This document shows, piece by piece, positions 2,808-5,622 of a stretch of DNA of 5,622 nucleotides (positions are counted from its first letter, which is position 1; each line of letters starts with the position of its first letter). The position numbers and the translations under genes are program-made. The notes beneath the pieces are model-generated. The model made no database searches, was not told where the DNA came from, and worked only from the letters and a program-made list of their open reading frames with translations. This stretch comes from Dehalococcoidia bacterium (lineage in GTDB: Bacteria > Chloroflexota > Dehalococcoidia > UBA1151 > UBA1328): positions 1-5,622 of the forward strand of contig JASLNQ010000155.1 of NCBI GenBank assembly GCA_030745955.1. Reading direction: 5' to 3'.

Positions 2808-3161
2808 TTGGCGAATATAACGGAACTCGAACGACACGAAGCACTGGCCAACGCGGCGCAGATAGCAGCGACGTTCTTCGCAGGCCTCAGCGATGCAAAC
2901 AGACTCCAGATCGTCTCAATACTCCTTGAGGAAGGCGAGAAAAACATCGGCGACCTGGTCACCAGGCTCGATATCACTCAGGGCAGGGTATCGGCACACC
3001 TCGCATGCCTGAGGACTTGCGGGTTTGTCGCAGCGCGGCGTGAAGGTAAGTTCGTTTATTACGCCATCATCAATCAACGGGTACGCGAACTTCTCAAAGT
3101 CGCCCAGTCGATTGTCCAGGACAACGCTGGCCGAATTCTCACCTGCGAGCTGGTCAACTGA
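2808..3161 (+). CDS. ArsR/SmtB-family metal-sensing repressor, CmtR-like
   Basis: This is a 117-residue winged-helix repressor, a typical ArsR/SmtB length. The N-terminal helices run to AGLSDANRLQIVSILL (25-40), then the helix-turn-helix region IGDLVTRLDITQGRVSAHLACLRTCGFV (47-74) and the wing RREGKFVYYAI (77-87). Cys67 and Cys71 in HLACLRTCG sit in the recognition helix and Cys113 is near the C-terminus. The spacing matches mycobacterial CmtR (Cys57, Cys61, Cys102), a Cd(II)/Pb(II) sensor using a thiolate site. Because merB follows 31 bp downstream, the likely inducer here is Hg(II) or an organomercurial. Metal binding would release the operator and derepress its own operon; this is inferred from the family. 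The start is TTG with a good GGAGGG. It is probably the first gene of a three-gene operon. Confidence 0.9.
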   Translation: MANITELERHEALANAAQIAATFFAGLSDANRLQIVSILLEEGEKNIGDLVTRLDITQGRVSAHLACLRTCGFVAARREGKFVYYAIINQRVRELLKVAQSIVQDNAGRILTCELVN

Positions 3162-3192
3162 GACCGGCCGCAAATCACATCGGAGGTGCAAC

Positions 3193-3875
3193 ATGAGCAC
3201 GACCACATCAATCAACACATCGATCGACCAGGTAGTCGCTAACGTGAGGGCCATCGGACTCCCGCCCGATAGGAACCACAGCACAAATCTGCTGGTGTCG
3301 AAAATCTACCGGGAACTGGCCAAAGGCTCACCGGTCGACCCCACGACGATCGACGCACTGATCGAAGAGTCGCGGATGGATCTCGAACCGGGCCGCGAGT
3401 TCGTCGCAGGCGTTTCCGAACCAGACGATGCAGGAAACGTCGGCGGCGCTGTCGGACTATCGCAGAAACAGTACGCCGACCAGTTCCGTGTCAACGGTGT
3501 CGACCTGACGACCTGGTGCGCATGGGACACCCTGTTCATAGCGCAGATCCTTGCCAGAACGCCAGTGTCACTTCCTTCGCCCCCGGCTCTGGCGATGAGG
3601 TCAACCTCGATGTCTCCCCATCCGGTGCGGTCGCGACACCCTCGGAAGCCGTCGTGTCGTTCGTTTTGCTTGATCCCGAGCAGATAGACATGGACTCGAT
3701 GGAGTCGGTCTACATGGTCTTCTGCCACCAGATTCACTTCTTCCCGTCAAAGGAAGCCGCAGAAGCCTGGAGCAAGGACAGTGAATACGAATTCGCCATT
3801 CTCTCGGTCGACGAGGCATTCCAGGTCGGTACAGCGGCGTTCCAGGGCACGATCTCCGCGGCGGCGAAGGCCTGA
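3193..3875 (+). pseudogene. merB: Alkylmercury (organomercurial) lyase, frameshifted
   Basis: MerB cleaves the carbon-mercury bond of organomercurials, releasing Hg(II) and a hydrocarbon. The first frame starts at an ATG six bases after GGAGG and encodes the N-terminal domain (KIYRELAKGSPVD, residues 37-49) and the catalytic block TWCAWDTLF with Cys109 and Asp112. Homology then leaves this frame just after ILART and continues in another frame from ASVTSFAPGSG, through VFCHQIHFF with the second catalytic Cys (about 178), to EFAILSVDEAFQVG and a stop at 3873-3875. One missing base near 3561 explains the break; restoring a G there reads RTASVTSF, as expected for MerB, and gives about 227 residues, close to the usual length. 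As read, translation stops at 3685-3687 after 164 residues without the second cysteine, so the product should be inactive. A sequencing error is an equally good explanation. No slippery heptamer is visible. Confidence 0.9.
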
Positions 3876-3896
3876 TCCCGAAATGGAGGTTGGAAC

Positions 3897-4211
3897 ATGA
3901 ACATTGAAATTCTGTGGTTCGAGGACTGCCCGAACCGTTACGCGGCACGGGACCTGGTTGAAGAGGTCCTCGCCGAAAACCGAATAGAAGCGACTATCGA
4001 TTCGATCGAAGTGCCCGACCTCGAAACAGGAGAGCGGGTGCACTTCCCCGGCTCTCCGACAATCCGGATCAACGGCAGAGATGTCGAACCGGACTTTACC
4101 GATACCGGTGAATACACACCTCGTTGCAGGATTTACCTGACCGAATCGGGCTACGCGGGAGTGCCAGAACGCGAATGGATCGAGGAATCGGTTTCAACCG
4201 CAATGACCTAA
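3897..4211 (+). CDS. Small thioredoxin-fold protein of the mer operon
   Basis: This 104-residue protein starts with a beta strand and active-site-like turn, IEILWFEDCPN (3-13), where the usual CxxC is reduced to one cysteine, Cys11. A long helix (AARDLVEEVLAENRI) follows, then FPGSPTIRINGRDVEP (50-65), which carries the cis-proline expected of thioredoxin folds (Pro54). A second cysteine, Cys77, lies in RCRIYL, and the end is GVPEREWIEESV. It resembles short thioredoxin-like proteins often found near metal-resistance genes, but I do not know a fixed name for it. It lies 21 bp after the merB stop with a strong GGAGGT six bases before ATG, so it is almost certainly co-transcribed with merB. A role in carrying Hg(II) or reducing thiols for MerB is inference from position and cysteines. 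No signal peptide is seen, so it is probably cytoplasmic. Confidence 0.85.
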   Translation: MNIEILWFEDCPNRYAARDLVEEVLAENRIEATIDSIEVPDLETGERVHFPGSPTIRINGRDVEPDFTDTGEYTPRCRIYLTESGYAGVPEREWIEESVSTAMT

Positions 4212-4249: not shown

Positions 4250-4340
4250 TAGCGCACTACCCCCGCTCGTACGCGAAGCCGCCGCGTAACAGCGCCGCGA
4301 CAACCCCATCCGCATCCCGCGTAAAGTGCGCTACCTGGGC
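4243..4340. repeat. Imperfect 16-bp inverted repeat spanning a stop codon
   Basis: The arms at 4243-4258 and 4325-4340 are reverse complements at 15 of 16 positions, separated by 66 bp. The left arm reaches into the stop codon of the minus-strand hydrolase and the right arm lies in its C-terminal coding sequence. The left arm also shares CCCGGG with the small hairpin at 4234-4249, so two alternative structures are possible. A transcript-end structure on the hydrolase mRNA is one explanation; chance in GC-rich sequence is another. Confidence 0.5.
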
Positions 4341-5622
4341 CGTCTCGTAACCCAGGAACGTATCGGGCCCGACCGGCAGAGCGACCATCACCGCCGACTC
4401 CCCCGACTCCGCAGGGCTCTCGATCACCAGCCCATTCTCCGATATAGCCCGCACCAGGGTCGAGTTCCCCGCCTGCCGGTACTCCCCTTCGAACTCATTC
4501 AGCCCACCCACAGGCAACCTGTAGCCACTCCTGAACGGCAGCGGCTGATCCGGTGAATCACGCCACAGCGGCCTGCCGCGAACGATCTCCAGCAGGCGCT
4601 CCGCAAGCTGCAGCGGCACGACATTGCCCCGGTTCGTCAGCACAACCACGCTCGTTCCCTCGGCCGGGACCATCAGCGAATACGTCGAAAGCCCCACCAT
4701 CCCCCCGTTGTGGCCAACCGTCTTCAACCCGCCGTGCGCCGAAATCGTCCACCCGAACCCGTAGCCCCAGCCTGTATCGCCGTACTCGAATGAAACCCGT
4801 TGCATCGCTTCCAGCGATTCCCTGCCCAACAGCGGGCTGCCATCGTGGTCCATCGCGGCGACCTGGTAGAGGGCAATATCGTGCGCCGTGCTCACCACCC
4901 CACCGGTCGAAAGATAGGTCTGGTAGTCCTCCGCCAGATGTCCTACCTGGTACTCGCCGTGGGTCTCACCGGTCGCCATTTCCCCCGAACCCGGCCGCGT
5001 GTAATTGACCGCCCGGTCCGACAGCGACCTCCAATCCCGGAACCGCACCAGCGTATTCCGCATGCCCGCGGGTGCGAATACGCGGGTCAGAAAGTAATCC
5101 TCGAGCGGCACGCCGCTGACACGCTCGACCATGTGGCCCAGCGTCGCAAACCCCTCGTTCGAGTACGACCAGAACCTGCCCGGCCCGCTCTGCAATTCAG
5201 CGCCGGCAAGGGCTGCCATAAGCGATTCGCGGGTGGGGTAGGGGTTCGGCGTTTCTGTCCTCACTCTTTCCTGGAAACCCGGTAGCCCGATACCGCTCGA
5301 ATGCCGCATCAGCTGCCTGATCGTGATTTCGCCGCTCGCTACGGCATCGGCCACCCGCCACCCCGGCAGGTGCTTCTGCACCGGGTCGTCGATCCCAAGC
5401 AGGCCCTGCTCCGCCAGTTGCATCACGGCCGTGCAGGTTATCGACTTGGTGAGTGAACAGATCGACCATGCGGTCTGCGGAGTCGCCGGAATGCCGTCGC
5501 CGACGTTTGCCAGCCCCACCGCATTGAGCATGCCCGATTCCAGATCGGTCACCCGCATGGGGGGATTGCCCGAGCGGGCCTCCAGCGTGATGGACTTGGT
5601 GACGACCGCGCCGAGCCCTCGC
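4257..5622 (-). CDS. Serine beta-lactamase-like hydrolase fused to a PyrD fragment, partial
   Basis: The frame is open from the window edge to TAG at 4257-4259, giving 454 residues here. Most of it is a class C beta-lactamase/penicillin-binding-protein-like serine hydrolase (family S12 type). Counting from the Met at 5556-5558, it has Ser35-x-x-Lys38 in CSLTKS, the YSN motif at 132-134 and the HNG motif at 283-285 in VGHNGGMVG, so the catalytic set is complete. A separate C-terminal domain, about 345-433, follows. The normal start of this fold, the strand before GYG-x-AN that usually precedes the SxxK by 45-60 residues, is missing. In its place the frame encodes dihydroorotate dehydrogenase sequence. 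The Met at 5556-5558 lies inside that PyrD stretch and no ribosome binding site precedes it, so it is probably not a true start. No signal peptide is visible. Esterase, peptidase or beta-lactamase activity cannot be distinguished. Confidence 0.8.
   Translation of the reverse strand, partial: RGLGAVVTKSITLEARSGNPPMRVTDLESGMLNAVGLANVGDGIPATPQTAWSICSLTKSITCTAVMQLAEQGLLGIDDPVQKHLPGWRVADAVASGEITIRQLMRHSSGIGLPGFQERVRTETPNPYPTRESLMAALAGAELQSGPGRFWSYSNEGFATLGHMVERVSGVPLEDYFLTRVFAPAGMRNTLVRFRDWRSLSDRAVNYTRPGSGEMATGETHGEYQVGHLAEDYQTYLSTGGVVSTAHDIALYQVAAMDHDGSPLLGRESLEAMQRVSFEYGDTGWGYGFGWTISAHGGLKTVGHNGGMVGLSTYSLMVPAEGTSVVVLTNRGNVVPLQLAERLLEIVRGRPLWRDSPDQPLPFRSGYRLPVGGLNEFEGEYRQAGNSTLVRAISENGLVIESPAESGESAVMVALPVGPDTFLGYETAQVAHFTRDADGVVAALLRGGFAYERG
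5499..5622 (-). pseudogene. pyrD: Internal fragment of dihydroorotate dehydrogenase
   Basis: Reading the minus strand from the edge, about 41 codons give LGAVVTKSITLEARSGNPP followed by MRVTDLESGMLNAVGL. This corresponds to the conserved class 1 PyrD region that reads GAVVTKS-TLEPR-GNPPPR then AGMLNAIGLQNPG. PyrD oxidises dihydroorotate to orotate in pyrimidine synthesis. This segment lies in the N-terminal third of that barrel; the rest of the barrel, including its catalytic cysteine or serine loop, is replaced by the beta-lactamase-like domain. The beginning of pyrD would lie beyond the window. Whether this is a genuine gene truncation or an assembly join cannot be told from here. Confidence 0.8.

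What the first reader, a model, noticed from the sequence alone, without database searches (positions are those of the whole stretch)
5490..5622. In-frame join of a PyrD N-terminal segment to a beta-lactamase-like hydrolase
The open frame passes from an unmistakable PyrD core (VVTKSITLE, GNPP, GMLNAVGL) directly into a serine hydrolase (GIPATPQTAW, CSLTK) with no stop. The two families share a short look-alike at the junction: PyrD normally has GLQNPG and these hydrolases have GxANxG, here GLANVG. That is what recombination or mis-assembly through microhomology would leave. A genuine fusion would destroy PyrD and remove the first strand of the hydrolase, so both parts are probably inactive unless the protein is a real new architecture.
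Basis: partly seen in the sequence, partly recalled or inferred. Interest (0 to 1): 0.75.

Follow-up and report, generated by a model that had tools for sequence, protein, structure and literature searches.

The report
Two genes spliced by assembly error
The apparent fusion of a pyrimidine-synthesis enzyme with a beta-lactamase-like enzyme at the end of this sequence is almost certainly an artificial join between DNA of two different bacteria that share a short word, so it is ordinary and not a new protein.

Summary
The join is real in the letters but almost certainly not in nature. The minus-strand frame 5621-4257 reads 34 residues of class 1B PyrD, then VGLANVG (5519-5499), then a PF00144 serine hydrolase. 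The same hydrolase exists elsewhere (P0001) with an ordinary N-terminus; over the 420 residues from VGLANVG on it differs at one.

VGLANVG is native to both parents. Among 120 listed hydrolases only P0001 has it exactly; 10 of 11 PyrD relatives have NAVGLANVG; one independent pyrD (L056) carries 20 of the junction's 21 bases. Across 37 pyrD loci, identity to the window is a median 62% left of the word and 25% right of it. None of 131 fetched relatives matches both halves.

Named relatives suggest Chloroflexota for the contig and, through one name, Planctomycetota for the PyrD tail. That tail is 103 bases at the contig end, shorter than a common short read. Best reading: chimeric contig end through a shared 21-mer, made by the assembler or a chimeric read. 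Reads could not be mapped.

The parts
5520..5622 (-). PyrD-only tail (class 1B dihydroorotate dehydrogenase, internal piece, residues 37-70 of P0121), cut by the contig end
5499..5519 (-). 21-base junction word coding VGLANVG, native to both parent families; the crossover lies somewhere within it
4257..5498 (-). Serine hydrolase (PF00144, CubicO/beta-lactamase class C-like). Against P0001 the 37 residues before the word are missing: the modelled first helix, the first strand and about half of the second strand
5463..5465 (-). Codon for Ser53 of the open frame, where P0001 and the 15 other aligned homologues have Pro; possible base error in a thinly covered contig end (inference)

Best explanation
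The open frame is a chimera made after the DNA left the cells. A contig from a bacterium that looks like Chloroflexota, ending inside a PF00144 serine hydrolase gene, was extended at its end by up to 124 bases of a pyrD gene, most likely from another organism in the same sample (Planctomycetota-like). Both genes contain nearly or exactly the same 21-base word coding VGLANVG in the same reading frame, so the artificial path stays in frame. Shown: the join, the native occurrence of the shared heptapeptide in both families, the unfused copy of the hydrolase, no two-domain relative among those fetched, and the sharp loss of similarity on each side of the word. Inferred: that the step was a de Bruijn graph path at a small k or a single chimeric read, and that the two parents are different organisms.
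For: (1) P0001 (457 aa) is the same hydrolase with an ordinary family N-terminus. Over the 420 residues from VGLANVG to the end it differs at one; in the 34 residues before, 5 of 34 agree without gaps. (2) Exact VGLANVG occurs in the first 70 residues of 1 of the 120 listed hydrolases, P0001 itself; 10 of 11 PyrD relatives have NAVGLANVG. (4) 37 pyrD loci in register without gaps: median identity to the window 62.1% in the 103 bases left of the word, 71.4% in it, 25.0% in the 60 bases right of it. (5) None of 131 relatives (120 hydrolases, 11 PyrDs) matches both halves; none of the 120 listed hydrolases carries a PF01180 label and none of the 11 PyrDs carries PF00144. (6) Different kin: the 6 of 120 listed enoyl-CoA hydratase relatives that carry an organism name are all Chloroflexi or Dehalococcoidia, while the best PyrD match (88% over 93% of the 44 residues) is named Phycisphaerales. 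In the 20 genomes with the best pyrD matches in one sampled order, the hydrolase finds only 24-36% identical matches in 15 and none in 5. (7) The PyrD-only piece is 103 bases at the very end of the contig.
Against: No reads could be mapped, so coverage across 5499-5519 is unknown. The DNA of P0001 and of the true pyrD donor was not available, so identity of the 21 bases in both parents is inferred from protein and from L056 (20 of 21). The database counts 2 contigs for the window's enoyl-CoA hydratase (P0132); the second was not fetched and could carry the join. Only 120 of the 514 hits were listed and looked at. Only one of 11 PyrD relatives bears an organism name, one named hydrolase relative is Ectothiorhodospiraceae (48%), and no Chloroflexota pyrD was compared, so a join within one genome is not excluded. 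Base composition does not separate the halves (68.0% G+C in the tail, 64.7% in the hydrolase).
Confidence: 0.92

Rival explanations
1. A real rearrangement in one strain: recombination or deletion through the shared 21 bases joined a pyrD (own or transferred) to the hydrolase gene, leaving a pseudogene beside an unfused sister strain.
For: A 21-base shared stretch would also allow real recombination. The join is in frame, and the one residue difference from P0001 could mark a distinct strain. A second contig with the same enoyl-CoA hydratase is counted but was not seen.
Against: The nearest named relatives of the two sides lie in different phyla. The join lies within about a read length of the contig end. 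No other protein with the join was seen among the listed hits of two searches of a 5.8-billion-protein collection, nor the exact 42-base junction in viral contigs.
Confidence: 0.06
2. A real, working two-domain protein in which a PyrD piece precedes a serine hydrolase.
For: The frame is open throughout and the SLTK (SxxK) region of the hydrolase is present.
Against: None of 131 fetched relatives covers both halves. The 37 residues that P0001 has before the word are missing, and the aligned relatives keep at least the stretch from the IPG/VPG motif on. The best predicted model falls from mean pLDDT 71.3 (P0001) to 53.6, with residues 1-57 under 50, though the other four P0001 models scored only 46.7-51.0, so this is weak. 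The PyrD piece is only about 40 of 304 model positions.
Confidence: 0.02

Closest known systems
[quoted passage not shown]
   Same: A stretch common to two genomes joins otherwise unrelated flanks. PMC8171044 (passages seen) defines such nodes and gives total chimeric contig lengths of 12.5, 12.7 and 18.0% for the three assemblies in one of its tables.
   Different: That paper speaks of stretches shared by evolutionarily similar species; here the shared word is short (21 bases) and lies in two unrelated gene families. A chimeric library read would leave the same trace.
Dihydroorotate dehydrogenase class 1B catalytic subunit (PyrD; PF01180, NF005574)
   Same: Residues 2-41 of the frame match model positions 39-78; 88% identical to P0121 over 93% of residues 1-44.
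   Different: Only an internal piece of about 40 residues; the rest of the enzyme is beyond the contig end or absent.
CubicO/beta-lactamase class C-like serine hydrolase (PF00144)
   Same: 419 of 420 residues equal P0001 from the word on; the next three listed hits are 76-80% identical over 92% of the query.
   Different: The 37 residues that P0001 has before the word are replaced by 34 residues of PyrD.

Membership tests
Chimeric metagenome contig | A word shared by two unrelated sequences sits exactly at the join | tested here: met
   VGLANVG in P0001 and in 10 of 11 PyrD relatives; 20 of 21 bases in the independent pyrD L056. DNA of P0001 not seen
Chimeric metagenome contig | Similarity of each parent stops at the shared word | tested here: met
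   37 pyrD loci: median 62.1 / 71.4 / 25.0% left / within / right; P0001: 419 of 420 residues from the word on, 5 of 34 before it
Chimeric metagenome contig | The two sides come from different organisms | tested here: inconclusive
   Named relatives point to Chloroflexota versus Planctomycetota, but only one PyrD relative is named and no Chloroflexota pyrD was compared
Chimeric metagenome contig | Reads split, or depth changes, at the join | not testable with these tools
   No reads available; no genome held
Genuine PyrD-hydrolase fusion protein family | Homologues that cover both halves | tested here: not met
   0 of 131 fetched relatives match both halves; 394 further hits were not listed
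Functional PF00144 serine hydrolase | Complete fold including the N-terminal strands | tested here: not met
   37 residues before the word are missing against P0001; residues 1-57 have pLDDT under 50 against block means of 74-90 for residues 1-60 of P0001 (shallow alignments, models vary)
Functional class 1B PyrD | Whole barrel with active site | tested here: not met
   Only positions 39-78 of 304 present before the contig ends

The most novel reading that the evidence does not exclude
A strain really carries this in-frame fusion, arisen by recombination between a transferred Planctomycetota-type pyrD and a Chloroflexota hydrolase through the 21-base word, and expresses the hybrid protein.
Probability: 0.02. 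Interest if true: 0.5.

Novelty: not a real feature. Interest (0 to 1): 0.06.

Why it matters
It matters mainly as a warning. A frame that stays open across two protein families, with both Pfam domains over their cut-offs, can be produced by a 21-base coincidence at a contig end, and such frames can enter protein databases as false domain architectures. If the fusion were real it would be an unusual case of gene joining between phyla.

Tried and rejected
Searching the window's own genome for a second pyrD: no genome is held. Plasmid records, distant blastn with 4260-5622: no match. Viral contigs for relatives of P0121: 13 stretches matched a pattern, none confirmed. Exact 42-base junction in viral contigs: 0. 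Rfam at gathering scores in the window: 0. The genome-contig scan with the fused protein gave 15 distant hydrolase loci (26-38% identity), all with matches starting at query residue 32 or later, so none with the PyrD piece. G+C and third-position G+C of the two halves do not differ usefully. The alignments had 16 and 17 rows, and the five models of P0001 spread from 46.7 to 71.3 mean pLDDT (fusion: 40.0 to 53.6), so it is weak support. A second paper search listed 4 papers, none opened.

Considered and rejected: a real two-domain family (no homologue among those fetched), fusion of neighbouring genes (the PyrD piece would have to be cut inside its coding sequence exactly at the shared word), and a chance look-alike (scores on both sides).

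Full report
What is there. The minus-strand frame 5621-4257 is open at the contig end and codes 454 residues. Residues 1-34 are PyrD only, residues 35-41 (VGLANVG, bases 5519-5499) are common to both families, and residues 42-454 are a PF00144 serine hydrolase. The PyrD piece corresponds to residues 37-70 of the 307-residue P0121. The contig ends 103 bases beyond the common word.

The hydrolase exists unfused. The best hit of the fused protein is P0001, 457 aa, on a contig of 2474 bases, with 100% BLAST identity (as rounded by the tool) over 93% of the query. Its N-terminus is the ordinary one of the family: it aligns with the other 15 members through the IPG/VPG motif and the stretch after it. 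From VGLANVG (its residue 38) to the C-terminus, 419 of 420 residues equal the window; in the 34 residues before, 5 agree. The one difference is window residue 53, Ser, where P0001 and the 15 other aligned homologues have Pro. By a looser motif search Pro stands there in 102 of the 111 listed hydrolases where the motif was found; 9 have another residue (2 of them Ser), and in 9 of the 120 the motif was not found. The odd residue lies 34 bases from the junction word and could be a base error in a thin contig end. That is inference.

The PyrD piece has close unfused relatives. A search with residues 1-44 only, among proteins of 0.55-1.75 times the full length, gave 11 proteins at E up to 10 (of 48 candidates), all PyrD by Pfam (one with a second label, PF01207), none with PF00144. 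10 of the 11 contain NAVGLANVG. I then searched P0121 in 392 genomes of the phylum of G001 (the genome of L015, titled Planctomycetaceae; 361 of 392 matched) and in 121 genomes of the order of one of them, G382 (115 of 121 matched; the tool does not name the order). Loci were fetched for the best matches only: 37 loci, L022-L058. All 37 could be read at the motif, 36 have GLAN and one has GLEN. The shared motif is exact, which makes the microhomology argument stronger.

The junction. Exact VGLANVG occurs near the N-terminus of 1 of the 120 listed hydrolases, and that one is P0001, the allele that is joined here. At DNA level the pyrD of L056 carries 20 of the 21 junction bases; the next best of the 37 loci have 17 of 21. 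With the 37 pyrD loci laid in register without gaps, identity to the window is a median 62.1% in the 103 bases left of the word, 71.4% in the word and 25.0% in the 60 bases right of it. One locus, L050, has extra residues before the word and is out of register there; it was kept in the medians. On the other side the match to P0001 starts at the word. So both parents' similarity stops at the same 21 bases.

Origin of the two sides. Of the 120 listed relatives of the contig's enoyl-CoA hydratase, 6 carry an organism name and all 6 are Chloroflexi or Dehalococcoidia, the best at 83%. Of the 120 listed hydrolase relatives 4 carry an organism name: Chloroflexi (49%), Dehalococcoidia (49%), Ectothiorhodospiraceae (48%) and, far off, Cytobacillus firmus (27%). 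The 20 genomes with the best pyrD matches in the order of G382 have only distant hydrolases, 24-36% identity in 15 and none in 5. This points to two organisms of different phyla, but only one PyrD relative is named and no Chloroflexota pyrD was at hand. The database counts 2 contigs for the window's enoyl-CoA hydratase (P0132); the second was not seen, so I cannot say whether it reaches the join.

Fold. The best model of P0001 has mean pLDDT 71.3, with block means of 77-90 over its first 40 residues. The best model of the fused frame has 53.6, with residues 1-57 below 50. The alignments had 16 and 17 rows, and the other four models of P0001 scored only 46.7-51.0, less than the best fused model. 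I take this only as agreeing with the loss of part of the fold.

How it most likely arose. A 21-base word shared in the same frame by two genes in one sample lets a de Bruijn graph assembler at small k walk from one genome into the other, and a chimeric library read would do the same. That assemblers use k near 21 and that short reads run to 100-150 bases is recalled, not looked up. The PyrD-only tail of 103 bases could come from one read. Chimeric contigs from nodes shared between species are described in PMC8171044 (passages seen through). I put the artefact at 0.92, a real rearrangement at 0.06 and a working fusion protein at 0.02. What is missing is the reads.

Other features of the contig are listed as noticed in passing.

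Noticed in passing
3193-3875, + strand: A MerB (alkylmercury lyase)-like gene lies in two reading frames: the first frame matches model positions 15-110 and the second 109-200 of NF009710 (Pfam). Either a sequencing error in this contig or a decayed gene. Described only.
   Followed up: partly
2808-4211, + strand: An ArsR/SmtB-type metalloregulator (NF033788), the split MerB-like gene and a 'DF family (seleno)protein' gene (NF049942; only a weak thioredoxin match in Pfam) follow each other on one strand, with a short DsbD-like membrane piece (2325-2627) on the other. It looks like a mercury-response cluster (inference).
   Followed up: partly
17-130 and 1286-1399: Two copies of a 114-base direct repeat, 86% identical, with no Rfam match at gathering score.
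   Followed up: no
1444-2244, - strand: The enoyl-CoA hydratase of the window is counted on 2 contigs, the longest of 5622 bases (P0132), so a second contig of the same organism seems to exist; it was not fetched.
   Followed up: no
   Followed up: yes
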